Source: Rivularia sp. MS3
GTDB lineage: Bacteria; Cyanobacteriota; Cyanobacteriia; Cyanobacteriales; Nostocaceae
Reading direction: 5' to 3'
DNA: 43,495 nucleotides
Assembly: GCA_019192545.1 (NCBI GenBank)
Contig: JAHCMI010000077.1
Location: 1-43,495 of the forward strand
The notes beneath the pieces are model-generated. The model saw nothing but the letters and a program-made list of their open reading frames with translations. It had not been told where the DNA came from and made no database searches. Of the stretch, positions 117-26,844 are shown in pieces; the first letter of the stretch is position 1, and each line of letters starts with the position of its first letter. The translations under genes and the position numbers were made by a program.

Positions 117-1205
117 TTACCAATCATAAATATCTTCAGAATTTGAATTTAGGTAAGGGCATTCTAAATCAACTGACTTGCAAGCAAAGTGCTGACAAAT
201 AATATTTAATTTTTCTGGGGGTGACTCAATCCCCTTTTCCCAAGCTTCTAGTAAAGCGTTGGAAATTATTTGACAGCGATTGACACCAAAACTCTGTTTG
301 TTGAGGGGCTTTTCTATGGGTTGCTCGGCTAAACTTAACCCTGGCGCTAAATATTTGCTAAATAATGGTACTTCTGGCTGAAAATTGCTTTGATTGTTTA
401 TGTAAATTTCTTTTAATAACTGTTGCACTATCCCATAGTGTTGCTTTGGAAAATTAAGTATTCCCGAATCATAGCGATCGCAACCTAAAGGATGATGGGG
501 AACTTGAAAGGTGAAGGGGATTTGCACATTGTTTAATTTGTCTGTAAGACAGTGCATTAAAGCAATAGCACCTTGTGGATTTACGTTAAAAAATATGCTG
601 ATAACATCTAAATCGCTCCAAACATTTTGTAAATCATCTTGCTGTTGTTTCGCTGAATTACTCACTGCTAAATAAAAGCCATTATTTAAACGATTTTTAG
701 GCAGTCGGATAGCAATTAAGTCATCAACTTTACTCGATAAGGCGGCTGATTCTAAATCATTTTCTTCAACATGCAGCGTTAAACCACCTTTAGTTACAGC
801 CAAACTTCCATCAGGCTCTTGTCGTAACACCCTCCAACCAGAATCTAAATAACCCGTACCTTGATTGTTTTCGTGGAGTCGATTGTAAAATCTGGTATCT
901 CTTTCAAATACACAATTATTTTCTAAATCTTGATGTAATAACAGGTTGGGATTGCTAATATTTGCTGCTAATACACTTTGTAAAGAGTTGTTATAATAAA
1001 TACCGTAAATAAAATTACGCAGTAGCAAATTGAGATATTTATCTTGCAGTGCGGTGGAACTTTTTTCCAGCGTTTCTGCCATTAAAGGCGGTAAAGAAAA
1101 AGGTTGATAATCTGGATGAATGATAGAAAAGTTAGGTTCTATTTGAATTTTATGAGCAATTTCTAAGAAAGTATTAGATAGAGAATTTTTATAAGAAGTT
1201 ATCAT
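117..1205 (-). CDS. HopA1-family (PF17914-like) lyase, copy 1
   Basis: This 362-residue protein resembles the HopA1 effector family that bacteria use as a phospho-Ser/Thr lyase in class V lanthipeptide and thioamitide pathways. There it eliminates phosphate from a precursor phosphorylated by a partner kinase. Visible blocks shared with the second copy at 24488-25603 are HPDYQP near residue 30, RNFIYGIYYN near 64, a GTGYLDSGW block near 115, GFYLAVSN in the middle, and FGVNRCQ and YLNSNSEDIY near the C terminus. It follows an APH-type kinase gene on the same strand with a 136-bp gap, the same order as the second pair. No precursor gene is visible beside it. The family call rests on pattern recognition, not on a search. 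Its activity on a peptide is inferred. Confidence 0.75.
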   Translation of the reverse strand: MITSYKNSLSNTFLEIAHKIQIEPNFSIIHPDYQPFSLPPLMAETLEKSSTALQDKYLNLLLRNFIYGIYYNNSLQSVLAANISNPNLLLHQDLENNCVFERDTRFYNRLHENNQGTGYLDSGWRVLRQEPDGSLAVTKGGLTLHVEENDLESAALSSKVDDLIAIRLPKNRLNNGFYLAVSNSAKQQQDDLQNVWSDLDVISIFFNVNPQGAIALMHCLTDKLNNVQIPFTFQVPHHPLGCDRYDSGILNFPKQHYGIVQQLLKEIYINNQSNFQPEVPLFSKYLAPGLSLAEQPIEKPLNKQSFGVNRCQIISNALLEAWEKGIESPPEKLNIICQHFACKSVDLECPYLNSNSEDIYDW

Positions 1206-1341
1206 GGCTGGTTTATGTAGATTTACGAATCAAGAGTTTATTAAAATCAATGCAGCCCTGTTGAGAAAAGAAAAGTTAACAGCAACCAGGTAAAACTGGT
1301 TACTGTTAACTGCTATCTGTCAATTGCTAAATATTTGCTGG

Positions 1342-2583
1342 CTAACACCCGCGCAAACGAGTTTTTTCGTAGAACAGAGGAATTAAATTATTCTCTCTTT
1401 GTGCAACAGAAGCCTTAGCAGATTTTACAAATGGTTTCAGAATTTGTAATTCTGATTTACCAAAAATGTCTACCACGTATTCTGGCGTTCTAGTTAAGAT
1501 ATTTCTAGCAAAACTTAAAGCAATTAAGCTTGTTTGATGCAAATTTTGCTGGCTGTTAATCTTATCCTGGATTTGATTAATTAATGCTAAACCGGCATAC
1601 TTGATAATCGACTGGATAAAATCTTTACGGTAATCCAAAATCATTGGAAAAGCTTTGAGATAAGACTCAATTAAAGCCAACATTGAAGGTTGAAGAATCT
1701 CCAGCCCAATAGCCGCTAATTCCAAAGATTCCTCTAACTCTAAAGTTGAATCTACAACTAAACTTTCTAACCAAATTTTTAAATAACCGGCTAGTAAAGT
1801 TCCTAAATCGTAGGCGGGATCTCCCCAACCGCAAGCTTCCCAATCAATCATCTTCACATCTACATTATCCAGATGCTGCCAACGAGAATGTACTAAAACG
1901 TTCTCTAGTTTTAAATCGTTATGGGTTAAACAGCAAGGATTCCATGCGCTTGCTAAATCGGCAATTGCAGACTCTAAAAAGTCATACTTTTGATAGTTAC
2001 AGTAGAACGAAAGCCCGCTACTGCTAACTTTACCGAAAATAGAAGGTTCGAGAAAATCGATCCCCTGTGCCGGATTAAAATACTGATAGCGAATCTGCCC
2101 CGCTGGAGCAGTAGCCATAAAATCACGGTACTTTTGACGTTTAAAAGTCGCACGATGCAATGATGCTAAAGTATTGCCGATGGAGTTTGCGAGTTCTGGC
2201 GGAAAATATAGGTTATGCCTGTAATAGCTTGCCAATCCTTGGTATTCCCAAAGATAGTTACGCACGAGGATCGAATTCTCCTCATCGTAATGTACTACTA
2301 GCGGAGATAACGCTTTTATGTTGCCGAGAACTGGAAATGATTCAAGCAATTGGTGAAACAGCCATTCATTATAGAACTCACGGGGAATACCGTTAAATTC
2401 TTGGGCTAGTTCTTGTTTAACCAAAAGCTTGCGATCGCCATTCTTAGTAACCAGTATGCTTAAATTCTTACGGCTACTACTGTGTGGCAAATCTGCATCG
2501 GCGGTTGCGCCATCTTCTGAGCTACTCAGCCCTGCTTCTTGCAGATACTGGATAACGTTTTGAGAAGACAGTGAAAGTTTCAT
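1342..2583 (-). CDS. APH-type phosphotransferase, copy 1
   Basis: This 413-residue protein belongs to the aminoglycoside/choline phosphotransferase kinase superfamily. It shows a Lys in LLVKQE (K56), the catalytic loop THNDLKLENVL (H221, D223, N228) and the metal-binding IDWE (D247), followed by the family pattern GWGDPAYDLG. In class V lanthipeptide and thioamitide clusters such a kinase phosphorylates Ser/Thr of the precursor before a HopA1-type lyase acts, and a HopA1 gene follows here on the same strand. The protein is clearly paralogous to the kinase at 25705-26844 but is 34 residues longer, with a Ser-rich stretch near residues 19-38. Antibiotic phosphorylation is a less likely alternative given the neighbour. 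Confidence 0.8.
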   Translation of the reverse strand: MKLSLSSQNVIQYLQEAGLSSSEDGATADADLPHSSSRKNLSILVTKNGDRKLLVKQELAQEFNGIPREFYNEWLFHQLLESFPVLGNIKALSPLVVHYDEENSILVRNYLWEYQGLASYYRHNLYFPPELANSIGNTLASLHRATFKRQKYRDFMATAPAGQIRYQYFNPAQGIDFLEPSIFGKVSSSGLSFYCNYQKYDFLESAIADLASAWNPCCLTHNDLKLENVLVHSRWQHLDNVDVKMIDWEACGWGDPAYDLGTLLAGYLKIWLESLVVDSTLELEESLELAAIGLEILQPSMLALIESYLKAFPMILDYRKDFIQSIIKYAGLALINQIQDKINSQQNLHQTSLIALSFARNILTRTPEYVVDIFGKSELQILKPFVKSAKASVAQRENNLIPLFYEKTRLRGC

Positions 2584-5721: not shown

Positions 5722-7035
5722 ATGCTAAAAACAAGCAACATGCAAGACTCTATGGTCAGCAATCGATTTATTATAGGTATAGTTGCCTTCGGGGTGAGTT
5801 TCGGTTTAACTTTGGTCTTTACCTGGTGGAATTTTAATACTGCCCTTGCTACGGGGATCGTAACTATACTTGCTACATATACAGCAACATTTATTGTAGA
5901 TAAGAAGGCAGAAAGAAAACGTAGAAATTATGAATTACAGGTTGTAGATTCTTACTACAAACGAATCCAAGAATTAGAAAGCGTACAGCACGGCATCACT
6001 TTAGAAGTTAATCAGTTAGAAACCACGCGCCGCGCTTTGCATCAAGAGTCAAGTCAACTGCAACATCAAGTAGGCGATCGCCGCAATCAAAGAGATTCAC
6101 TCAATCGAGAATTAAGTACGTTTGCGCTTCAGAAAAGACACTTAGAATCAGAAGTTATTAATTTACGGGATGAACTGAAAACTTTAGAAAAATCCAAACA
6201 AGAAACGGAAAATTCTTTAGCTAACATTACGGCAGAAAAGCGGCGCTTAGAGTTAAATTGTAATGTATCGAAATCAGAGATAACTCAGTTACATGCAAAA
6301 ATTGGCGAACTTCTTCAACAGCGCGAAGAATTAGACAGTAATTTAATTTTATTAGATAGACTAAAGCCCCAGTTAGAAGAGAGATTGTACGAGTTGCGAG
6401 TACAGGTTGAAGAATTAGAAAGCGAGCAGAAAAAGCAACAAGAGCTATTTAGTAGTAGAGATAAAAAAATTGATCGATTAAAAGCAGATATAAAGCTATT
6501 AAAAAATCAGAAAGCAGAAGAGAAAAAGCAGTTAGAACAGTTGCAGGGGCAAACTTCATTGCTTCAGGAAGAAAGAGATGTATTGCAAAACCAAGTTTTG
6601 GAATTGTTGCAACAATTAGAAGGCTTGAACCCCGAGGTACCCATAGCTCAAGTAGAAACAGATGAAGAAACAGAAGAATTTCCCTTCGCTGATTTGATAG
6701 AAAGTATTTCGATTGAACCAGCACAAACAGCAGAAACAAAATTAGATGAACTACCGCAAGAATGGCAAGATTTGCAGCAAAGTTTGTTAGAGCATGAAAT
6801 AAAGGTGTTGAAAGCGATATTAGAGCAGGTAAAAGTCAACCCTACAATCAAAAAAATTGCCGAAGAAAATATCTCAATGCCAAATCTGCTGATTGATTCG
6901 ATTAACGAGCGCGCACAAGATGCCATTGGTGAATTAATTATTGCAACGAGTGATGATATTCCCGAAGTCTACGAAGAGTATAAAGAAAATATTCAAAAAA
7001 TTATTACCATGTCTGAAGCTGTGGAAAGTAAATAG
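5722..7035 (+). CDS. Membrane-anchored coiled-coil protein with TerB_C-like C terminus
   Basis: This 437-residue protein begins with two close hydrophobic segments (about residues 17-60). A basic stretch, KKAERKRR, follows, and then a coiled coil from about residue 70 to 300 rich in Leu, Gln, Glu and Lys. The last 95 residues form a separate globular domain (EWQDLQQSLLEHEIKVLKAIL to the end). It resembles the C-terminal domain found with TerB proteins (TerB_C), in which a helix-rich unit contains an INE..xDxIGE motif. Proteins of this kind often sit beside DUF2791/BrxD-like ATPases, and such an ATPase is the next gene here. The coiled coil suggests a tether from the membrane to cytoplasmic partners. 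The domain name is a recollection and needs a profile search. Confidence 0.6.
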   Translation: MLKTSNMQDSMVSNRFIIGIVAFGVSFGLTLVFTWWNFNTALATGIVTILATYTATFIVDKKAERKRRNYELQVVDSYYKRIQELESVQHGITLEVNQLETTRRALHQESSQLQHQVGDRRNQRDSLNRELSTFALQKRHLESEVINLRDELKTLEKSKQETENSLANITAEKRRLELNCNVSKSEITQLHAKIGELLQQREELDSNLILLDRLKPQLEERLYELRVQVEELESEQKKQQELFSSRDKKIDRLKADIKLLKNQKAEEKKQLEQLQGQTSLLQEERDVLQNQVLELLQQLEGLNPEVPIAQVETDEETEEFPFADLIESISIEPAQTAETKLDELPQEWQDLQQSLLEHEIKVLKAILEQVKVNPTIKKIAEENISMPNLLIDSINERAQDAIGELIIATSDDIPEVYEEYKENIQKIITMSEAVESK

Positions 7036-7297
7036 TATTTTTATGTTTGAGTAAATTTAAGCAGCAAAGCCTCTAAAAACGAAAAATTAAAAAAGATGTG
7101 AATTGTATTAGACTTTAGCCGGTTTGAATTATCGAACAAAATTTCATGTAACCTATATGCAACCTAAAATTGAATAGAGCAGCAAAATATTTGCATAATT
7201 AAAGTATTTTTTTACCATCATGGTGCGTTGCGCTGTGGGACAACACACCCTACTATAGAATTTCGTTTGAGAATCAAACCGGAAAATTTAAAATCGA
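7036..7297. repeat. Intergenic repeat of the GGTGCGTT...ACACACCCTAC type
   Basis: The 262-bp gap before the DUF2791 gene contains, at 7220-7255, ATGGTGCGTTGCGCTGTGGG followed by ACAACACACCCTACTA. The same unit, in the opposite orientation, occurs at 29951-29984 and 40635-40667. This is a common dispersed repeat in cyanobacterial spacers. Confidence 0.6.
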
Positions 7298-8626
7298 ATG
7301 ACAAAGCCTAAAATCTCTAAAAAAGTATCTACAGCTTTGATAAACTCCTTGGGTGCGGGGGTAGTACCCAGAATCGGGTTAGAAAATGTCGCAGTAGGTA
7401 GAGACAAAGAACTAAAAAGTCTTGTGCAGAGTATTGAAGATATTGCACAAGGAGTAGCAGCATTTCGGTTTGTAATTGGAAATTACGGTTCCGGTAAAAG
7501 TTTTATGCTGCAACTTGTTCGCAATCGAGCGATGGAGTTGGGTTTTGTTGTTACCGATGCGGATTTATCTTTGGAAAGAAGATTAGCCGGAAGCAATAAT
7601 CAAGGTTTGGCTACTTATCGAGAATTGATGAGTCGTCTTGCGACAAAAACACGTCCTGATGGTGGTGCTTTTGTTTCGATTTTGGAAGGATGGATTAATA
7701 AGATTCAGCAAGAAGTAGTTCAAAACAGCGGTATGAAACCCAATGATGAGGGTTTTGACGATGCAGTAGAAGCGAAAATTAGAGAAGTAGTTCAGCAGAT
7801 AGAAGATTTAGTCCACGGTTTTGATTTTGGCAGCGTCATTGTTGCTTATTGGAAGGGTTATCGTTCCGATGATGATGATTTGAAAAATGCTGCATTGCAG
7901 TGGCTGCGGGGAGAATTTAATAAGAAAAGTGAAGCAAAAACGGCTTTGGGAGTAAGAGTAATCATTGACGATGAAAGTTGGTATGATTACCTCAAGTTAT
8001 TAGCAAAATTCGTTGCTGAAATCGGTTATAAAGGGCTGATTGTGTTTTTAGATGAAGCGGTGCATTTATACCAGATATCTCCTACAGCAAGTCGAGAGAA
8101 GAACTATAGCAGGTTGCTGGCAATTTTTAACGATGTAATGCAGTGCAAAGCTGAATATTTAGGAGTAATTATCGGCGGAACACTCAAGTTTTTAGAAGAT
8201 CCAAATAGAGGGTTATTTTCCGATTCCGCTTGGAGAAGACGTACTAAAGAAAGTCGTTTTGTTGCAAAAGCAGGAGTACGGGAAATTAACGGGCCTGTAA
8301 TTAAACTAAATCCTTTAAGTGAATCAGAAATTCTCAACTTGTTAGAGAAATTAGCCGATATACATGCGTTTAACTATAATTATCAAAAAGTTTTAGCTCA
8401 GAATGATTTAAAAGAGTTTGTGCAAGAGATTGTTAACCGTTTGGGGGCTGAAGCTTTATTAACTCCCGGCGAAATTGTTCGCGATTTTATCAGCGTCTTA
8501 AATATTTTGCATCAAAACCCGCAAATTACTTTGAATCAAATCATTCATGATTCAGATTTTAAACCTACTAAAATAGGCGCTAGTGCAGAAGTTGATGAAG
8601 AAGATGTTGCGGAATTTAGTATATAA
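7298..8626 (+). CDS. DUF2791/BrxD-like P-loop ATPase
   Basis: This 442-residue ATPase carries a P-loop GNYGSGKS at residues 61-68 and a Walker B LIVFLDEAVHLY with D252 and E253. A GGTLKFLEDPNRGLFSD-type segment follows, and then a helical C-terminal region. The N-terminal block (SLGAGVVPRIGLENVAVGRDKEL) and the general layout fit PF10923 (DUF2791), which includes the BREX ATPase BrxD and ATPases of Ter-type stress and defence loci. Its neighbour upstream ends in a TerB_C-like domain, as expected for that second group. The SF2 helicase usual in those loci is not found in the window, so either the locus is incomplete or the pair acts alone. Confidence 0.72.
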   Translation: MTKPKISKKVSTALINSLGAGVVPRIGLENVAVGRDKELKSLVQSIEDIAQGVAAFRFVIGNYGSGKSFMLQLVRNRAMELGFVVTDADLSLERRLAGSNNQGLATYRELMSRLATKTRPDGGAFVSILEGWINKIQQEVVQNSGMKPNDEGFDDAVEAKIREVVQQIEDLVHGFDFGSVIVAYWKGYRSDDDDLKNAALQWLRGEFNKKSEAKTALGVRVIIDDESWYDYLKLLAKFVAEIGYKGLIVFLDEAVHLYQISPTASREKNYSRLLAIFNDVMQCKAEYLGVIIGGTLKFLEDPNRGLFSDSAWRRRTKESRFVAKAGVREINGPVIKLNPLSESEILNLLEKLADIHAFNYNYQKVLAQNDLKEFVQEIVNRLGAEALLTPGEIVRDFISVLNILHQNPQITLNQIIHDSDFKPTKIGASAEVDEEDVAEFSI

Positions 8627-19710: not shown

Positions 19711-20712
19711 TCATTTATATACAAAACAACGAGGAACCACATTATTTTGATTCCCGTAATAATCAACTATCTCGTAACTTCGTAAAACAATTAATTCCAT
19801 CAAGTTTGCCATATTTTTCTTAACTATCAACTGCTCTGATGGAGATATATAAGATATTTCAGCTAGTAATACTCCCGTAATATCTTCATGCCCTCCATCT
19901 TCATTAATCCCGGCATGAAGCAAAATAGGCTGATAAAAATCTCTGGGTAACTCTAAAGCTTCAGATTGTTTTTTAAAAAACTCGTGAAATAATGGCTCAT
20001 CCTGCTCAAATAGCATCAATGCAGCTTTGAAACTCAAAGGGTGCTGTTTCGCAAACATCGCTAAGGATGAACAAATTGCAAAAGTGCTTGGTAAGGGCTG
20101 CATCTTTTGAATTTGCTCGTCTGTAATTCCTACGCTCTTTAAAGATTTATCAATTAAACGGTCGTGATGCAACTCTGAAGCAAAAAATTCTTGCAGCAGC
20201 TTATCAACGCGATTCGATTCATAATTTGCTAAAGCAGGAGCTAAAAGTTTAGGGCACAAATGAGTCACATGATAAGACTCTAACGCATAGCCCATTAGCT
20301 GATTTTTAGTAATTGTGCCATCAGCCATTTTGCCAAAGAACGGAGAAGATGTAAATTGGAGTTTTAAACGTTCTAAAAATCGCCATAATTCCCGATAAAA
20401 TTGACTTCCGCTCATACCAGCAGCAGCAACTTTATTTTGAGTTTCAATTAACAAACCACGTTTATCAAAATTGGCAAGTAGCTCGGGTATTTCTTCTTGA
20501 ATCTCCGGGCAAGCTTCGCTTAACTGCTCTAATGAAAAACCACCTACTTGTAAAAGTCTTAATAGTTGAGCTATTTCTTGATAATATTCCGATGGTGTAG
20601 AAATTGAAAAAGCTTGAGTTGCATCGCGAATGATAATTTCCTCATCTTTAAATTCAAACAAAACCTGATTTTTAAACAGCGGTTGCCCAAATTCGATTTT
20701 AGTTAGCATCAT
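19711..20712 (-). CDS. RRE-like domain fused to haem-oxygenase-like di-iron oxidase (HDO), ligands intact
   Basis: 333 residues in two parts. Residues 1-90 look like a PqqD-type RiPP recognition element: strand-rich start, then YYQEIAQLLRLLQVGGFSLEQL and ELLANFDKRGLLIE, the usual winged-helix ending. Residues 100-333 are all-helical and match the TenA/PqqC-like iron-containing redox fold (PF14518 type). Candidate metal ligands are E145xxH148, E180xxH183 and D272xxH275, as in haem-oxygenase-like diiron enzymes. The gene starts 30 bp after the stop of its paralog and lies last in a same-strand run with precursor peptides, a HopA1-type lyase and a kinase. I infer that it oxidises a leader-bound precursor; the chemistry cannot be read from sequence. 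Confidence 0.75.
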   Translation of the reverse strand: MMLTKIEFGQPLFKNQVLFEFKDEEIIIRDATQAFSISTPSEYYQEIAQLLRLLQVGGFSLEQLSEACPEIQEEIPELLANFDKRGLLIETQNKVAAAGMSGSQFYRELWRFLERLKLQFTSSPFFGKMADGTITKNQLMGYALESYHVTHLCPKLLAPALANYESNRVDKLLQEFFASELHHDRLIDKSLKSVGITDEQIQKMQPLPSTFAICSSLAMFAKQHPLSFKAALMLFEQDEPLFHEFFKKQSEALELPRDFYQPILLHAGINEDGGHEDITGVLLAEISYISPSEQLIVKKNMANLMELIVLRSYEIVDYYGNQNNVVPRCFVYK

Positions 20713-20742
20713 TTACTTTATTCCTATGATTTTTTATGGGTT

Positions 20743-21783
20743 TTAAATATCTGAGACTCTACGCAATAAGCTATGATTCGATGAATAATAATCAAAAATA
20801 GCGTTGTTATAAGTGGTATAAGTTTCTATAAAAAGATAAATTTGCCGTTGCCATCGTTGCTTTGTTGGTTCGTCAATATGAGATATTTGCTGAAATATTT
20901 GATGACTAATATTCTCAAGCTTACTCTTTTGAAAATAATTGATTAAATTTTGAATAGACTTAATAAAGCTATAGTTTACTTTCAAAGTTTCGCAAGCCCG
21001 AAGATAATCGCTAAAATTGTTCAAATTTTGATTTGCTAAAAATCCTAAAATACTAAAATAAAACAGCGAATCAAAACTTGCCCAATATGCCAAACTATTA
21101 AACATTGCCATTGTTTGTGGCAGTGGTATTGTATCCATCAAATCTTCATTATCAATACCAATCGAATTAAGTGCATCGACTAAAAACTCATCTTGGCCAT
21201 ATTCCTGGCAGTAAAGCTGATTGATTAATTGTCTAATTTCAGTAGAACTTTGAAAACTCAGTGTAGAAGCATCTATATAGGCTTGATGAGCCAATAAATG
21301 ATAAGTTTCTATAGCAAAACCGTAAATAAGGTTGATTGATAAATTAGATATATCGGGTATGATGAATGTCAATTTATTTTGATATGACTTATTTTGAAGT
21401 AAGTCGTAACTTAAATTCTCTAGTTCTAATAAAACATCTAAACCTGAATTAATTTTAATCTCATCAGCATCATCAAGCAGCTTTTTATCATCTAAGTAGC
21501 ACAGCAAAGTATTGATAGATTCCGGATTTTTCGGAGAGAAAGTTGTCTGTAACTTTGTCAGACTATTCGTTCCATCCATCATCATCAAAACTTTTTGCAA
21601 TGCTTTTTCTGTTTGAGCATTAACTTGAAAAGCAAAATCTCGTCCTTCTTGAGAAAAAATAATTTGATTTTGATATAAATTTACAGATGCAGTTAGTTTC
21701 GGATATTGGGGTAAAGGTAATTTATGCTGCTTACCTTCAAATTCTGATAGTTTTTTATCTGTTGTTGAAATCTTATTTAGCAT
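20743..21783 (-). CDS. RRE-like/HDO paralog with degraded metal site
   Basis: 346 residues with the same two-part plan as the next gene. The N-terminal part (about 25-110) has the PqqD-like order of short strands, then QTEKALQKVLMMMDGTNSLTKL and LLCYLDDKKLLDDA. The helical part keeps the first HDO motif, E159xxH162 in ETYHLLAHQ. At the second, where its partner has ELHHD, it has EYGQD with Gln197 in place of His. The DxxH of the last motif is not recognisable. It is therefore probably not an active diiron enzyme and may act as a leader-binding or structural partner. It lies 256 bp downstream of the last precursor gene and 30 bp before the active-looking paralog. Confidence 0.7.
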   Translation of the reverse strand: MLNKISTTDKKLSEFEGKQHKLPLPQYPKLTASVNLYQNQIIFSQEGRDFAFQVNAQTEKALQKVLMMMDGTNSLTKLQTTFSPKNPESINTLLCYLDDKKLLDDADEIKINSGLDVLLELENLSYDLLQNKSYQNKLTFIIPDISNLSINLIYGFAIETYHLLAHQAYIDASTLSFQSSTEIRQLINQLYCQEYGQDEFLVDALNSIGIDNEDLMDTIPLPQTMAMFNSLAYWASFDSLFYFSILGFLANQNLNNFSDYLRACETLKVNYSFIKSIQNLINYFQKSKLENISHQIFQQISHIDEPTKQRWQRQIYLFIETYTTYNNAIFDYYSSNHSLLRRVSDI

Positions 21784-22039
21784 TATAAAACTCCGAAAAT
21801 AATTATTTAAATATTTCGTATTGTATAAAGGCGGTTAATTTACTAGCAACCTTCACTTCAAGATTAAATTTTAATAAAGTGAAGGTTGTAGCTCGCTGTA
21901 ATTAAAAGAAACTACAGAGTAATAGAAAGAGTTCTCCTGGGAATCGTTTATTCTCTGAAAAATTGTTATTGGAGATTTTAATATCCCCTAACACCCCCTT
22001 AAATAAGAGGAGTTATTTGCAAATTTTAATCAGAAAAAC

Positions 22040-22324
22040 CTACAGAATTACCGGGGTATATGGGTAAGGAAAATGAGGAAATTTGATCGGCTTTTTAGGA
22101 TGAACTGGCTCTTTTGGGTGAATGGGTTCTTTTGGAATATAAACTGTTCTATATGGTTTGTCGGGATAATAAACAGTAGTTGCTATACTTTCAGGTGCAA
22201 CTCTAGTCAAACCACCAACTACCTGCTCGATTTCATTATCTTGCAATTCATTCAGAAAAGTTTCTGAATCGTTAAATAATTCTGCACCGTCTAAATTGAC
22301 ATCGTTGATTTGAATTTTAGCCAT
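22040..22324 (-). CDS. RiPP precursor-like peptide 1 (Pro-rich core, ends PVIL)
   Basis: 94 residues. Residues 1-38 form a leader (MAKIQINDVNLDGAELF, then NDSETFLNELQDNEIEQVVGG) with a Gly-Gly end typical of double-glycine leaders. The 56-residue core has 13 Pro in regular spacing: repeated PKEPIH, PKEPVH and PKKPIKFP, then PYPYTPVIL. It has six Ser/Thr, including ATTVYYP and YRTVYIP, and no Cys, so lanthionine rings cannot form within it. AGGAGA stands nine bases before the ATG (minus strand, 22334-22339). Its leader is almost identical to those at 22558-22836 and 23698-24027. The peptide product is unknown. Confidence 0.85.
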   Translation of the reverse strand: MAKIQINDVNLDGAELFNDSETFLNELQDNEIEQVVGGLTRVAPESIATTVYYPDKPYRTVYIPKEPIHPKEPVHPKKPIKFPHFPYPYTPVIL

Positions 22325-22557
22325 TTCTAAATGTCTCCTGGGATTTTTCGATTGATATCAAAATCGCGATTGTAGCTTTTGTTAAACCTTTCCTTTATTT
22401 TGCTTTCAGGTAATTCAAAACTTTGCACTGCAAGCTTGTAGGTGCTTTGAAACTTTTCCTAACGTTGTAATTTAGGACAGGTTTCAATGCAACTAACATA
22501 GTTAAGCAATGAATCTTGTAAAAGTACTTTTAGAGAAAGGTTGCAGTTAAAAGACAA
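22325..22557 (-). promoter_or_regulatory. Spacer between precursors 1 and 2, with duplicated ribosome-binding region
   Basis: The 50 bases before precursor 1 (CCTGGGATTTTT then AGCTTTTGT on the plus strand) closely resemble those before precursor 2 (22848-22896). The similarity covers the ribosome-binding site and beyond it, suggesting duplication of gene plus leader region. No second gene is seen here. Confidence 0.5.
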
Positions 22558-22836
22558 CTACAGTATCACCGGCTCATAAGGTATTCTGATGACTTCGGGA
22601 TGCTTAGGTGGTTTTGGATGAGTTGGCTGTGGAAGATGAATCGGTTTAATCGGATAAATTCGCTTGGGAAAATGAAATTTTTTGTTTTTGTAAAATTCGT
22701 AATCGTCTATAGAAATTGTTTTACCACCGATTACCTGCTCCATTTCACAATTTTCTAATTCATTAAGAAATGTTTCTGAATCGTTAAACAGTTCGGTGTC
22801 GTCTAATCTGACATCGTTGATTTGAATTTTAGCCAT
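22558..22836 (-). CDS. RiPP precursor-like peptide 2 (Pro/His-rich core, ends PVIL)
   Basis: Starting at ATG 22836 the product is 92 residues. A GTG nine bases further upstream would add MFK, but the ATG matches the starts of the two sister genes and is placed better relative to CAGGAAAC. The 38-residue leader differs from that of peptide 1 at only a few places and ends EQVIGG. The 54-residue core has 11 Pro, three Ser/Thr and no Cys. It carries PIKPIHLPQP, PTHPKPPKHPE and the shared end PYEPVIL. Leader conservation with a diverging core is the hallmark of RiPP precursor families. The core is rich in Lys and His. Confidence 0.85.
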   Translation of the reverse strand: MAKIQINDVRLDDTELFNDSETFLNELENCEMEQVIGGKTISIDDYEFYKNKKFHFPKRIYPIKPIHLPQPTHPKPPKHPEVIRIPYEPVIL

Positions 22837-23082
22837 TTTGAACACGTTTCCTGGGATTTTTTGTTTCTGTAGAAAAATAGCAATTACAAAGCTTTTTGTG
22901 TAAATCGGCTTTAAACAGTCATTGCGTTGAAAATATGCCTAAAAACATGCTCTTGAGTTATATTATTTTGGCACATCATGGCAGAATCAAAGCTCTACCA
23001 TCAATTGCAGTGACAGCAATAAACCTGTATATGCAATAATTGCAAAAATTTCTTATCTTAAACTTCTTATATTTTTTGTTTT

Positions 23083-23110
23083 AAATCAAGCAGGTATTAG
23101 AAATTGTAAT
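23083..23110 (-). promoter_or_regulatory. 28-bp element upstream of precursor 2, copy A
   Basis: On the plus strand it begins AAATCAAGCAGGTATTAG and ends AAATTGTAAT. A copy with one difference is at 24317-24344. It lies 247 bp upstream of the precursor 2 start codon. This arrangement before two sister genes suggests a shared promoter or regulator site, but no operator can be named. Confidence 0.5.
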
Positions 23111-23507
23111 GATTTTTTTATCTTTAAGATGGCTAGCTATGAATGGTACGAATGCATGTAAACTTAGCACGCTGCCTTTCAAAGCTATAAACTCTAAAAA
23201 AAATAGCTTATTAGATAAATAAATGCATTCTTACAGAACTTATCTCAAACAGGTTAATCACCGACTGTGTACCTAGTATTTAGTAATTAACTACATAAGC
23301 GATCGGGAATAATACCAATTTTGCTTTTAAACAGATTAATCCTCTAAACTCTCTTCCTCTGTGTTCTTTGCGCCCTTTGCAGTGATACAAATAAAGCCAT
23401 TAACTTTAATGCAGCAGACTGCTAAATTTACCAGTTAACTATTAACTATGTCGATAGATATAATAAGTTTCCCAGCGAACGCGATATTATCCCTTCTGTA
23501 TTAATAT

Positions 23508-23632
23508 TAGGACTTACACAACCGGCAGATTTTTCTGTAGGGTGCTGTGACACTTTAACCAATATTGAACGTAGTAACAATGTTTTTATTGTCACGCACC
23601 AACCGGGTATTATGACAATTGCGTAAGTTATG
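23508..23632. mobile_element. 125-bp MITE, copy 2
   Basis: Ends TAGGACTTACACAA and (from the other strand) CATAACTTACGCAA. It is flanked by the 5-bp duplication AATAT (23503-23507 and 23633-23637). Length and inner sequence match copy 1 at 11865-11989: TGTAGGGTGCTGTGACACTTTAA and GTCACGCACCA. It lies between the precursor genes. Confidence 0.85.
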
Positions 23633-23697
23633 AATATTAGTAACAACCTTCACCTCATGTATAAATTATGAGATGAAGGTTTTGATTTTAAATTAGC

Positions 23698-24027
23698 TTA
23701 GAGGATTACCGGACAAGGATAGAAGATAATAGGTTTAGTTCCGCAAACCGGCGGCTTCGGAGGATAATAACAAATTGGATAAACCGGTTTTATCTCGCGA
23801 ACAGGTTTCGGAGGATAAATGCAAATTGGTTCTTCAATAATGTAAACAGTTGTTATAGCCTTATCCTCAAAATCGGCTTGCATTAATTCTTTATTAAAAG
23901 ATTCTTTACTTAAACCACCAATTATTTCATCTGTTTCACTATCTTTTAATTCGCTCAAAAAAGTTTCTGAGTCATTAAATAGTTCGCTACCATCAAGCTT
24001 TATATCATTAATTTGGAATTTAGACAT
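23698..24027 (-). CDS. RiPP precursor-like peptide 3 (Pro/Cys-rich core, ends PVIL)
   Basis: 109 residues. The 38-residue leader (MSKFQINDIKLDGSELF, then NDSETFLSEL...DEIIGG) is a clear relative of the other two. The 71-residue core begins LSKESFNKEL, shares ITTVYI with peptide 1, and then runs through EEPICIYPPKP, KPVYPICYYPPKPPVC and IFYPCPVIL. It has 13 Pro, four Cys and five Ser/Thr. Cys occupies P-I-C and P-V-C positions where peptides 1 and 2 have P-I-H and P-V-H. It is the only one of the three that could form thioether rings if Ser/Thr are dehydrated. GAGGAG stands eight or nine bases before the ATG. It is the first precursor after the HopA1 gene, with a 460-bp gap. Confidence 0.85.
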   Translation of the reverse strand: MSKFQINDIKLDGSELFNDSETFLSELKDSETDEIIGGLSKESFNKELMQADFEDKAITTVYIIEEPICIYPPKPVREIKPVYPICYYPPKPPVCGTKPIIFYPCPVIL

Positions 24028-24487
24028 TTTGAAACTCCTCTTGTTTTACATTCCAAGAAAAATAATTATTACTAACATTTATGTCACTTTTTCTAAATTA
24101 TCATTAGCTGATTTTCCACTACGCAACTATAGCGAAGTGAAACTATGACAAAACATATTTAAACCGCAGCCTTAATGTTGCCAAAAAGCCGATTTTTCTA
24201 ATTTATGACATACCAGTATTATTCATGCAAAGCCATAAACAGCAATGAATAGAGAAAGTTGCATTTGGTGTAATTAGATTATTTCCTAAATAGAAATATC
24301 CTATATTTCTTAGTAAAAATCAAGCAGGTATTAGGAATTGTAATATTAATTGTAATATCCCGTAAATTCAATTTTCAAAGTATATATTTTATCTCTAAAA
24401 TCTTATTGATTTAATTACATAACTTCAATTTATCTTTATAAAAAAATGTGCTATCTTAAGAAAAGTGCTTAAAAAATGGATAAATAT
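24028..24487 (-). promoter_or_regulatory. Spacer between HopA1 copy 2 and precursor 3
   Basis: No gene seen. The 28-base shared element (24317-24344) is followed on the plus strand by TATTAATTGTAATATCC, so TTGTAATAT occurs twice in close succession. The spacer is long enough for an independent promoter for precursor 3. Confidence 0.45.
24317..24344 (-). promoter_or_regulatory. 28-bp element upstream of precursor 3, copy B
   Basis: AAATCAAGCAGGTATTAG followed by GAATTGTAAT, identical to copy A except for one base. It lies 290 bp upstream of the start of precursor 3, again on the side from which the gene is transcribed. Confidence 0.5.
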
Positions 24488-25603
24488 TTAAACAGTCAGT
24501 TGAGTATAGATATCTTCAGAATCGGCATTAAGATAACTGTGCCGTAAATCGATTTCTGCAATAGAAAAGTGATTAAGAATTGACTGAATTCGTTCTGAAG
24601 GTGAATTGTTTCCCCGATACCAAGCTGCCAATAATCCATTAGCAATAACTTGACAGCGATTCATACCAAAGCTTTCAGAAGAGTTAAACTTTTTGTTTGA
24701 TTCCTCTGCTAATGCTAAACCTGGAGCTAAATATTTCGCAAACAGTGGAATCTCTGCTTTAAAATAAGATTTATTTTCTTGATGTACAATTTGTAATACT
24801 TCTGTGAGTGCTTTCCAATCTCTTTTATCAAAATATAAAACACCGCAATCGTAGCGCTCGTATTCTTGAGGATTGTATAAGACTTTAAAATAATTAGGAA
24901 TTGCTAATTCATTCAGGTGCTTTGTCAAACTAGCCATAACTGTAACAGCACCTTGACGAGTGAGATGAAAGTAAACTCGTACTATTACGTGCTGTTGCTT
25001 TGAACTCTGAGGATAATACAATCCCATGTTGCTTACGGCTACGTAAAAACCATTTTGGACTAAATTTTTGGGCATTTTTACCGCAACATAATCTCCTACA
25101 GCGGCAGCTTGATGTTCGGGTTGAAGATGTTTTTTGCGTTGAATATGGAGCCTTAAATCTTTTTTGTTGACAGCTAAACTACCGTCAACTTCTTCTTTAA
25201 GAATATGCCAGCCAGGTTCAAAATAGCCTTTACCAAAGTTACTTTGATGCAATCTTTCGTAGAATTCTAAATCAACGCCCAGAAAAGTCTTGTTTTCAAA
25301 CTTTGGTGATGCATAATCCTCTTCGCTATCCAATTTCAAGGAACTTTGCATAGAACCGTTATAATAAATGCCATAGAGAAAATTTCTTAACCGCAAACCA
25401 AGATACTTTTGCTGTATATTTTCTGGCATTTTTTGAAAATGTATAACTGCATCATCTGAAATTTGATAAGGCTTATAATCTGGATGATGAATAGAAAAAT
25501 TAGAATTAATTTCCAGTTTATCAGCAATATCTTCGAGAACATTTACAAGTCTCCTAGTTGATTCATTAGTAGTTTGATTTAATAGAGAATCAAGAAAATC
25601 CAT
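24488..25603 (-). CDS. HopA1-family lyase, copy 2
   Basis: 371 residues, the clear paralog of the protein at 117-1205. Shared blocks are SIHHPDYKPY, YLGLRLRNFLYGIYYNGSMQ (about residue 67-86), GKGYFEPGWHILKEE, LVQNGFYVAVSN, AKYLAPGLALAEES, FGMNRCQVIANGLL and YLNADSEDIY at the end. HopA1-type proteins eliminate phosphate from phosphorylated Ser/Thr in class V lanthipeptide and thioamitide maturation. The kinase gene lies directly upstream (101-bp gap) and three precursor genes lie downstream on the same strand. That arrangement supports a dehydration role here. Whether all precursors are substrates is inferred. Confidence 0.8.
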   Translation of the reverse strand: MDFLDSLLNQTTNESTRRLVNVLEDIADKLEINSNFSIHHPDYKPYQISDDAVIHFQKMPENIQQKYLGLRLRNFLYGIYYNGSMQSSLKLDSEEDYASPKFENKTFLGVDLEFYERLHQSNFGKGYFEPGWHILKEEVDGSLAVNKKDLRLHIQRKKHLQPEHQAAAVGDYVAVKMPKNLVQNGFYVAVSNMGLYYPQSSKQQHVIVRVYFHLTRQGAVTVMASLTKHLNELAIPNYFKVLYNPQEYERYDCGVLYFDKRDWKALTEVLQIVHQENKSYFKAEIPLFAKYLAPGLALAEESNKKFNSSESFGMNRCQVIANGLLAAWYRGNNSPSERIQSILNHFSIAEIDLRHSYLNADSEDIYTQLTV

Positions 25604-25704
25604 GTAGGGTACCAGTGAATATAGAAAAAGCCAAACCTATTATTTAGCTACAGCAGCATATAATTAGCAATTACCAATCTTCCCAAAGAAAAACGATAGT
25701 TTGC

Positions 25705-26844
25705 TTAAACTAATTCCGAAGCAGTAGTACCAAAAATTGTTGGTAAAGAATGTTGCGGGCGACATATTAAAGACTTAGCAACTTGCAGCATTGCAATTCC
25801 TGTATTGTCAAAGATTTTTTGAAACTGAATTGTGGCATAAATTTGTTGAATCAAAATAAATCCTGCAAATTGTATAGTTCTTTCTAAAAAATCGGGACGA
25901 TACTTTAAAATCGTAGGGAAAAATTTAAAATAAGCTTTTTGCAAAGCTGCCATCGAAGGTTGCAATTTTTCTAACGGTATAACCGCCGTGCGTAAAGATT
26001 CCTCAATAGTCATTGATTGACAAACTACCAAACTATTAAGCCATATATGTAAATAATTGCCGATAAGAGTTCCTAAATCAAAAGCTGGATCTCCCCAGCT
26101 AAAACGCTCCCAATCGATTATTCGCAGCATGTTTTCATCACATTGCTGCCAATCTTGATTTAGAAGGATGTTATTGAATTTTAAATCGTTATGGGTAAAA
26201 CAACTAGGTTGGAAAGCATTCCCTAATTCAGCCATCGCTTTTTCTAAGCTTTCGTATTTCTGATAAAGAGAAAAGAATTTTAATGCCTGTGCGGGTACTT
26301 CACCAAAAATCTCCGGCTCGATTCGTTGCCAAGTCTGAATTAAACTATGCACTTGATGAATCCTTTGATATTCAGTCGTAGTAATTAAAAATTCTTGAAA
26401 GTTGCGGCAATGGTAGCTATCTCTATGGAAAACTGCCACTATTTCGCCTATGCGGGTAGCAATTTCTATGGGAAAATTATTTTGCTGAGTATAAAAATTA
26501 TATAAATCCAAGTAGCTATCTAAATATCGCAAAATAATTATATGGTTTTCTTTATCAAACCATAGCAAATCCGCAATTAAATTATCTAAGTTATTGAGTT
26601 GAGGAAATTGACGGATAGCTTCTTGAATTTGCCATTCCCTGATAAAATCACCATTTACCTTACCTTCTCTATTGCGTATTTCTTGCTTCACTAAAAGCCG
26701 CTTATGATTCTTGAAGGTAATTAAAAGATTAAAGTTTTTAGCTGGTATCTGTTCAATCTTGCTTATATCTTCCTTGGCACAATCTAATACACGAGAATTG
26801 CTTAAATAATCAGATATATTATCAGAGCTTAATATAAATACCAT
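25705..26844 (-). CDS. APH-type phosphotransferase, copy 2 (precursor kinase candidate)
   Basis: 379 residues of the aminoglycoside/choline kinase superfamily. Active-site pieces are LLVKQE (K53), CFTHNDLKFNNILL (H218, D220, N225) and IIDWE (D244), followed by WGDPAFDLG. It is the first gene of the minus-strand run that continues with a HopA1-type lyase, three precursors and two RRE/HDO proteins. The kinase would phosphorylate Ser/Thr of the precursor for elimination by the lyase. It is a paralog of the kinase at 1342-2583. There is a 246-bp gap to the divergent pabC-like gene, so the cluster promoter should lie there. Confidence 0.83.
   Translation of the reverse strand: MVFILSSDNISDYLSNSRVLDCAKEDISKIEQIPAKNFNLLITFKNHKRLLVKQEIRNREGKVNGDFIREWQIQEAIRQFPQLNNLDNLIADLLWFDKENHIIILRYLDSYLDLYNFYTQQNNFPIEIATRIGEIVAVFHRDSYHCRNFQEFLITTTEYQRIHQVHSLIQTWQRIEPEIFGEVPAQALKFFSLYQKYESLEKAMAELGNAFQPSCFTHNDLKFNNILLNQDWQQCDENMLRIIDWERFSWGDPAFDLGTLIGNYLHIWLNSLVVCQSMTIEESLRTAVIPLEKLQPSMAALQKAYFKFFPTILKYRPDFLERTIQFAGFILIQQIYATIQFQKIFDNTGIAMLQVAKSLICRPQHSLPTIFGTTASELV

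What the first reader, a model, noticed from the sequence alone, without database searches (positions are those of the whole stretch)
19711..26844. A RiPP cluster of unfamiliar make-up: kinase, HopA1 lyase, three Pro-rich precursors and two RRE/di-iron proteins
Seven minus-strand genes in order: APH-type kinase (active-site HND and DWE present), HopA1-type lyase, three small proteins with a common 38-residue Gly-Gly leader, and two proteins that join a PqqD-like domain to a haem-oxygenase-like fold. Kinase plus HopA1 is known from class V lanthipeptides and thioamitides. I know of no described family that adds tandem RRE/HDO oxidases and Pro-rich, PVIL-ending cores. The grouping is seen directly; the function of the product is inference.
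Basis: partly seen in the sequence, partly recalled or inferred. Interest (0 to 1): 0.88.

Follow-up and report, generated by a model that had tools for sequence, protein, structure and literature searches.

The report
Peptide cluster with paired C-terminus oxidases
A cyanobacterial gene cluster for a modified ribosomal peptide is built around two related iron-oxidase-like proteins that go with peptides sharing one short C-terminal tail, which suggests a little-explored way of oxidising the end of a ribosomal peptide.

Summary
The seven genes exist as described, but the constant core is not kinase + HopA1. It is the tandem HDO1-HDO2 pair (predicted PqqD-like N-domain plus haem-oxygenase-like domain) with precursors ending [V/A/I]-x-Leu. 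Of 20 loci with HDO-pair genes, 15 have a small ORF with the strict tail and 17 with the looser one; 6 join kinase + HopA1 directly. The tail occurs with three leader types. Among peptides of the window's leader family, 15 of 22 near an HDO pair carry it, against 1 of 55 elsewhere, itself from an HDO locus. Plasmids of Robbsia and Rhodococcus carry the pair behind ORFs of 27 and 17 residues ending PVHL and AVHL. HDO2 keeps three His and two Glu at the spacing of MboA, whose substrate binds iron through its C-terminal carboxylate; HDO1 has lost most ligands in cyanobacteria, not on the plasmids. Proposed: HDO2, partnered by HDO1, oxidises the C-terminal residue; kinase and lyase add optional dehydrations. 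Class V lanthipeptide membership fails (one kinase, two Cys-free cores). Chemistry, partnership and the role of the N-domain are inferred; structure models are weak.

The parts
25705..26844 (-). APH-type kinase (LanK/LxmK-like), catalytic motifs HND and DWE present
   Evidence: PDB 9dk1_A, named only Kinase, E 2.6e-4
24488..25603 (-). HopA1-type phospho-Ser/Thr lyase (LanY-like); R209, K240, R250 sit at nearly the spacing of CaoY Arg187/Lys219/Arg229
23698..24027 (-). precursor 1: 38-aa GG leader, 71-aa core with 4 Cys, 5 Ser/Thr, 13 Pro, ends CPVIL
22558..22836 (-). precursor 2 (ATG start at 22836): 54-aa core without Cys, 3 Ser/Thr, ends EPVIL
22040..22324 (-). precursor 3: 56-aa core without Cys, 6 Ser/Thr, ends TPVIL
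22043..22054 (-). codons of the C-terminal PVIL of precursor 3; the same tail lies at 22561-22572 and 23701-23712
20743..21783 (-). HDO1: predicted PqqD-like N-domain plus haem-oxygenase-like domain; four of the ligand positions lost
19711..20712 (-). HDO2: predicted PqqD-like N-domain plus haem-oxygenase-like domain; E180, H183, D184, E236, H266, N270, H275 at MboA-like spacing

Best explanation
The locus makes ribosomal peptides whose C-terminal end is oxidised by a paired HDO. Steps: (1) precursors are made with a Gly-Gly leader, a spacer (here Pro-rich) and a free C-terminal V/A/I-x-Leu tail [sequence shown]. (2) HDO1, a decayed HDO, and HDO2, the copy with ligands, work as partners, with the N-terminal PqqD-like domains holding the peptide [inferred]. 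(3) The C-terminal carboxylate binds the iron site of HDO2, and the last residue(s), Leu and perhaps Ile/Val, are oxidised; desaturation is most likely, oxidative decarboxylation next [inferred from MboA, VarO, PolF and UndA]. (4) In this strain a kinase and a HopA1 lyase also dehydrate some core Ser/Thr; this module is optional [families shown, activity inferred]. (5) The leader is cut after GG and the peptide exported by a C39-peptidase transporter encoded elsewhere in the genome [C39 domains shown, link inferred].
For: Tail tracks the HDO pair: 15 of 22 leader-family peptides within 2.6 kb of a pair end [VAI]xL against 1 of 55 elsewhere, and that one is precursor 1 of HDO locus L017. Tailed ORFs occur with other leader types in L058, L061, L062, L063 and with a nitrile-hydratase-like leader in L065. 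Leader-family peptides of seven fetched kinase/HopA1 clusters without HDO have none. ORFs of 27 and 17 residues ending PVHL and AVHL precede HDO1 on Robbsia and Rhodococcus plasmids, with RBS-like sequence in front and a hairpin behind. HDO2: E180, H183, E236, H266, H275 in 20 of 20; offsets 0,3,4,56,86,90,95 against 0,3,4,57,86,90,95 in MboA, whose substrate's C-terminal carboxylate binds Fe1 and whose last residue is desaturated (PMC13185094). Folds match 3dde, CADD, UndA, BesC and others. HDO1 and HDO2 are homologous over 305 columns. C39 matches in 5 of 5 genomes searched.
Against: No product or activity is known. One canonical ligand, Asp176 of MboA, is Asn270 in 19 of 20 HDO2; the metal site may be unusual or mononuclear. 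In L017 four of five precursors end in His, not Leu. Three of 20 loci show no tailed ORF: L064 (HDO2 frame broken near its start), L066 (HDO1 cut short) and L067 (part of HDO2 only). Chance ORFs with such an end also occur in the listing (for instance three inside HDO1 frames ending CAML, and one of 102 residues in L056 without GG). Tistrella shows no tailed ORF near the fused pair. The models are weak (pLDDT 65 and 56). The N-domain has no sequence-level RRE match. No heterodimer was modelled.
Confidence: 0.58

Rival explanations
1. The V/A/I-x-Leu tail is only a recognition handle (a C-terminal follower) for the HDO pair; the oxidised residue lies elsewhere in the core, for instance Tyr, Pro or Thr.
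For: RiPP enzymes often read a conserved segment and modify another (established knowledge). Several cores are rich in Tyr and Pro and carry a TT[V/A]Y stretch (by eye). CADD, one of the closest folds, cleaves its own Tyr (PMC13108848 passages).
Against: Cores differ widely between loci; in the 17- and 27-aa plasmid peptides little but the tail is shared with the cyanobacterial ones. In five substrate-bound HDO structures the substrate itself ligates Fe1 (review); for MboA that ligand is the C-terminal carboxylate.
Confidence: 0.22
2. A cyanobacterial class V-type (kinase + HopA1) dehydrated peptide in which the HDO pair is a minor tailoring step.
For: Kinase and lyase are adjacent and keep the catalytic residues checked in the window, L015, L017, L019, L055 and L064. 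A published survey found cyanobacterial 'type-B' precursors beside LanK/LanY (PMC9486802, section 7 read). The leader family is shared with kinase/HopA1 clusters that lack HDO.
Against: The HDO pair and tail persist without them: the genome of L016 (G005) has only a HopA1 lacking the catalytic Arg/Lys, and G335 has no match. Two of three cores have no Cys, and no second kinase-fold protein lies in the cluster.
Confidence: 0.15
3. The tail is a degron, a PDZ-type ligand or an export signal unrelated to HDO chemistry.
For: Short hydrophobic C-termini serve as such signals in bacteria (established knowledge); the tail is at the extreme C-terminus.
Against: Among peptides with the same leader type in the fetched loci it is confined to HDO loci, and it recurs in other phyla with the HDO pair but without a GG leader.
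Confidence: 0.05

Closest known systems
VarO of thiovarsolin biosynthesis (HO-like protein in a thioamidated RiPP; PMC6511847, passages read)
   Same: haem-oxygenase-like protein in a RiPP cluster; its deletion removes a dehydrogenation; the paper places the double bond in the Arg side chain of the thiovarsolins and leaves the timing open
   Different: one enzyme next to YcaO/TfuA in Actinobacteria, repeating precursor; here a pair with predicted PqqD-like N-domains, no YcaO/TfuA found, free V/A/I-x-Leu tail
MboA of mangotoxin biosynthesis (PMC13185094, passages read)
   Same: ligand spacing practically that of HDO2; acts on the C-terminal residue of a peptide, whose carboxylate binds Fe1
   Different: acts on a ligase-made tripeptide, with a separate redox partner; its first ligand lies 94 residues earlier in the chain, so an N-terminal domain is probably absent (inference); Asp176 where HDO2 has Asn270
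Class V lanthipeptide dehydratase LanK/LanY (cacaoidin; PMC9486802, passages and section 7 read)
   Same: APH-like kinase and HopA1 lyase with matching catalytic residues
   Different: no LanX-like second kinase-fold protein in the cluster, two Cys-free cores, the pair is optional here
PqqCD natural fusion (PDB 5vrd, seen as a Foldseek match only)
   Same: PqqC-type haem-oxygenase-like and PqqD-type domains in one chain, in a pathway that starts from a ribosomal peptide (recalled)
   Different: opposite domain order (recalled); PqqC acts late on a cofactor (recalled); the present proteins come as a tandem pair

Membership tests
Class V lanthipeptide | APH-like kinase LanK | tested here: inconclusive
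   NF038156 LxmK E 2e-27 over 28-369, but 96 bits against a cut-off of 315; catalytic motifs present
Class V lanthipeptide | HopA1-type lyase LanY with catalytic Arg/Lys | tested here: met
   PF17914 191.5 bits; R209/K240/R250 present, spacing 31 and 10 against 32 and 10 for CaoY Arg187/Lys219/Arg229
Class V lanthipeptide | second kinase-fold protein LanX (cyclase) | tested here: not met
   one APH protein between 19711 and 26844; the other kinase of the window (1342-2583) is over 17 kb away beside its own HopA1
Class V lanthipeptide | core with Cys and Ser/Thr for thioethers | tested here: not met
   pre2 and pre3 cores have no Cys; pre1 has four
Haem-oxygenase-like dimetal oxidases (HDO) | haem-oxygenase-like fold | tested here: met
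   Foldseek, HDO2: 3dde, CADD, AetD, FlcD, UndA; HDO1: 3dde, BesC, UndA, CADD; models of low confidence; HDO2 also passes two Pfam cut-offs
Haem-oxygenase-like dimetal oxidases (HDO) | 3 His / 3 carboxylate ligand set | tested here: inconclusive
   HDO2: 3 His and 2 Glu in 20 of 20, third carboxylate is Asn270 in 19 of 20, D184 might replace it; cyanobacterial HDO1: not met; HDO1 of three plasmids: 3 His, 2 Glu and Asn
RRE (PqqD-like) domain | winged-helix domain of three strands and three helices that binds the precursor | tested here: inconclusive
   predicted strands followed by three helices fit; one Foldseek match of 92 columns to ThcOx, place in the chain not shown; no Pfam or convincing PDB sequence match; binding not testable
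Thiovarsolin-type (VarO) RiPP | YcaO and TfuA proteins beside the HO-like enzyme | tested here: not met
   no such family in the cluster or the window proteins scanned (genes right of 27882 were not scanned)
Cyanobacterial 'type-B' class V precursors | published leader alignment | not testable with these tools
   the alignment is in a supplement (Figure S6) that could not be read; section text only

The most novel reading that the evidence does not exclude
A RiPP class of its own, in at least three bacterial phyla, defined by a tandem pair of RRE-fused HDOs that read the free C-terminus of a ribosomal peptide (V/A/I-x-Leu) with its carboxylate as iron ligand and turn the last residue into an unsaturated or decarboxylated end group. 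In its smallest form the precursor is a 17-residue peptide without a GG leader and both HDOs keep ligands; in cyanobacteria one of the two became a partner without metal and the module was plugged into several leader types, with kinase/HopA1 or LanM dehydration added.
Probability: 0.4. Interest if true: 0.85.

Novelty: new variant of a known kind. Interest (0 to 1): 0.72.

Why it matters
HDOs are known to act on amino acids and small peptides, and in RiPPs, in the papers seen here, through VarO. A recurrent genetic link between an HDO pair and a defined C-terminal tail gives a handle to find such clusters by sequence, predicts which residue is oxidised, and offers very short substrates (17 and 27 residues) for biochemistry. 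The change of HDO1 from a copy with ligands (plasmids) to one without (cyanobacteria) is a natural test of what the second copy does. If C-terminal desaturation or decarboxylation is shown, it would be a route to unsaturated peptide ends without AviCys chemistry.

Tried and rejected
Rejected: a plain class V lanthipeptide (one kinase, Cys-free cores, kinase/HopA1 optional); a defence system (no PADLOC match for four proteins); chance neighbours (order recurs in relatives). Led nowhere: sequence evidence for PqqD in PDB (the weak PbtF match to HDO1, E 0.024, was not followed). The one genome-contig scan used two short peptide patterns and returned six loci, all cyanobacterial, so its silence on other phyla means little. 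A phylum-wide sample of 386 genomes gave three carriers, own included, all already known. No Tistrella precursor. A paper search on CADD ligands gave none.

Patterns: one search listed ORFs with a wide end filter, from which I picked by eye those with the tail and, but for L059, a GG leader; one search used [VAIM][IVM]L; one search used the looser [VAI]xL, chosen after seeing VHL and IPL. Counting the tails listed with the strict form gives 15 of 22 and 0 of 55. The Fisher value (7e-10) treats related peptides as independent and is too small. Dropped before the 20-locus count: L068 (single distant HDO) and L069 (61-residue fragment). L020, L021, L023, L024, L025 are the places of L016, L017, L018, L064, L019 again.
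Full report
WHAT IS THERE. The seven genes of 19711-26844 are real and in the stated order. Pfam and NCBIfam name the kinase (APH; class V LxmK-like but below that model's cut-off) and the HopA1 protein (PF17914, E 1e-56); HDO2 passes the TenA/PqqC and PF14518 cut-offs, HDO1 does not. On one side lies an RNase T-type exonuclease, on the other an aminotransferase class IV protein and an FtsH-like protein (named by my reading of the translation). The same flanks surround the cluster in L015, L016 and L017. Named relatives: Calothrix parasitica NIES-267, Richelia sp. UBA3308, Cylindrospermum sp. NIES-4074, Desmonostoc vinosum, Paraprochloron terpiosi and Goleter apudmare.

HOW IT VARIES. HDO2 matches were found in 6 of 60 genomes of the relatives sample, own included, in 15 of 388 genomes of the order sample, own included, one of them a distant single HDO (G356) and one a fragment (G218), and in 3 of 386 of the phylum sample, own included and all already known. 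I read 20 loci with HDO-pair genes: the window, L015-L019, L022 and L055-L067; three of them have broken or incomplete HDO genes (L064, L066, L067). Kinase and HopA1 are directly joined to the pair in 6 of 20 (window, L015, L017, L019, L055, L064). In L057 they lie a few kb upstream with a different precursor between, and L059 begins at a contig end. L055 and L065 have a LanM-type protein nearby (DUF4135 plus LANC_like). L016, in the same syntenic place as the window's cluster, has only HDO1, HDO2 and one precursor. Its genome, G005, has one HopA1 match; that protein (L136) carries Ser and Gln at the two positions of the catalytic Arg and Lys. G335, 99% complete, has no match yet carries L058 with a tailed precursor. 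So kinase and HopA1 are an option, not the core.

THE TAIL. Of the 20 loci, 15 have a small ORF ending [VAIM][IVM]L beside the pair: 14 with a GG motif, and L059, whose ORF is cut by the contig start (picked from the listing). L060 has one ending CAIPL, and L017 one of five ending CPVHL while the other four end in His. L064, L066 and L067 show none. Three leader types occur: MAKIxIxDIK-type in most, an MKIENLENLQEINTEE-type in L058, L060, L061, L062 and L063, and a 168-residue nitrile-hydratase-like one in L065 (NHase_alpha E 1e-16); peptides of the second and third types did not appear among the matches of a profile of the first. As a control that profile, from ten sequences, was searched in 16 HDO-carrying genomes: 75 matches in 11 of 16. 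After fetching the rest, 16 of 82 distinct peptides in all loci held then had the strict tail, one a truncated duplicate, and all 16 lie at HDO loci. A second census with a distance rule gave a [VAI]xL tail in 15 of 22 peptides within 2.6 kb of a pair and in 1 of 55 others; that one is the CPVHL precursor of L017, just beyond the limit. The seven near peptides without tail are the four His-ended ones of L017, two of L019 beside other genes and one of L057. Related peptides were not corrected for. Seven fetched clusters have kinase/HopA1 and peptides of this leader family but no HDO match (L127, L128, L129, L131, L132, L133, L134; the peptides of L127 and L131 were read in the smaller loci L117 and L116), and none of their peptides has the tail.

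OUTSIDE CYANOBACTERIA. A translated search of 72,556 plasmid records with HDO2 gave four. Robbsia andropogonis p4 and Rhodococcus gordoniae pDND3A have HDO1 then HDO2 side by side, Tistrella mobilis pTM3 has both in one 691-residue frame, and Enterobacter chuandaensis has two HDO-type genes, not clearly the pair. In front of HDO1 lie ORFs of 27 residues (Robbsia, ending IPVHL) and 17 residues (Rhodococcus, ending VAVHL, from the ATG that I chose), each behind an RBS-like stretch and before a strong hairpin (z -6.4 and -5.7). They are not in the PLSDB gene table, which is incomplete. No tailed ORF was found in Tistrella; the Enterobacter ORF in front of its larger HDO gene ends in NARL. Neighbours in Robbsia and Rhodococcus are an exporter (EamA or MFS) and a GNAT acetyltransferase, which suggests a small product, but that is inference.

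THE ENZYMES. HDO1 and HDO2 are homologous over 305 columns (hhalign probability 99.4). AlphaFold models from seven sequences each are poor (mean pLDDT 64.7 for HDO1; 56.4 for HDO2), but both show N-terminal strands and three helices followed by a helical domain, and both find haem-oxygenase-like structures first: 3dde, CADD, UndA, BesC, AetD, FlcD, PqqC, TenA between them. HDO2 also found ThcOx over 92 columns, which may be an RRE match; the output does not say where. In 20 HDO2 sequences E145, H148, E180, H183, E236, H266 and H275 do not vary, and N270 is Asn in 19 and Asp in the distant L068. The spacing E180, H183, D184, E236, H266, N270, H275 is that of MboA's Glu86, His89, Asp90, Glu143, His172, Asp176, His181 but for one residue (PMC13185094, passages). 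In 18 cyanobacterial HDO1 the His183 position is Gln in 14 and never His, Glu236 is Leu, Ile or Phe, His266 is Leu in all 18, and His275 is His once. In the three plasmid HDO1 the corresponding Glu, His, Glu (one column on), His, Asn and His are present. So HDO1 seems to have lost its metal site in the cyanobacterial line. This rests on alignments, not structures.

MECHANISM. MboA desaturates the C-terminal residue of a tripeptide, whose C-terminal carboxylate is a ligand of Fe1; the paper likens this to AetD, UndA, HrmI and PolF. The HDO review says that in five substrate-bound structures the substrate supplies ligand(s) to Fe1 (PMC13108848, passages). PolF takes Ile and Val through a desaturated intermediate (PMC12614342, passages). 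VarO is tied to a double bond in an Arg side chain of a RiPP (PMC6511847, passages). With a tail fixed exactly at the free C-terminus that tracks the HDO pair, the simplest reading is that HDO2 binds the peptide by its C-terminal carboxylate and oxidises the last residue. Desaturation (-2.016 Da) or oxidative decarboxylation (-46.005 Da) are the likely outcomes; which one is open. The kinase and HopA1 of the window keep the catalytic residues checked and would dehydrate Ser/Thr: both match a solved pair whose chains are named only Kinase and Lyase (9dk1), and CaoK/CaoY do this in vitro (PMC9486802, passages). Two cores have no Cys, so thioethers are not possible there. C39 peptidase domains occur in 5 of 5 genomes searched, 12 matches in the window's genome, none of them on the window's contig.

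NOVELTY AND LIMITS. Ten paper searches in an open-access library gave no description of HDO pairs with such a tail; most subscription papers are not in it, so this is weak. HDO in a RiPP is known (VarO), and kinase/HopA1 in cyanobacteria is known (type-B precursors). I therefore call it a new variant of a known kind, with a real chance of being a RiPP class of its own. Function, partner assembly, the role of the N-domain and the product are inference.

Noticed in passing
window 117-2583: A second kinase + HopA1 pair lies at the contig edge. Its kinase motifs are present, but its HopA1 has Ser and Gln where the main copy has the catalytic Arg209 and Lys240. Close copies (74-100% identity) are in all eight same-genus genomes, own included, and no leader-family peptide was seen beside it in L135-L138.
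   Followed up: partly
L019:3923-5729, L128:9965-11005; by resemblance also L129, L133: Some cyanobacterial kinase/HopA1 clusters carry an aldo/keto-reductase-like protein, in L019 with a PPIC-type isomerase beside it, perhaps another optional tailoring module.
   Followed up: no
L055:11218-14463 and L065:13381-16338: LanM-type proteins (DUF4135 plus LANC_like) lie near the HDO pair, so the pair may also be combined with class II lanthipeptide enzymes.
   Followed up: no
L017:9056-11479; L117, L118, L119: Peptides of the same leader family end in His (VNH, VGH, VFH, SAH in L017; MEH in Pro-rich peptides of three genomes, one of them next to the kinase/HopA1 pair of L127), which may be a second C-terminal code.
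   Followed up: no
L140:7020-8510 and L142:6807-8405: A third protein of about 500 residues with weak HDO similarity follows the HDO pair on the Robbsia and Tistrella plasmids.
   Followed up: no
L057:13583-15865: A kinase/HopA1 pair near an HDO locus has lost the kinase motifs (QNN, NWD) and the lyase Arg/Lys, so it is probably decayed or changed in function.
   Followed up: no
window 5722-8626: A TerB-C-domain protein next to a BrxC/D-family ATP-binding protein; not part of the finding.
   Followed up: no
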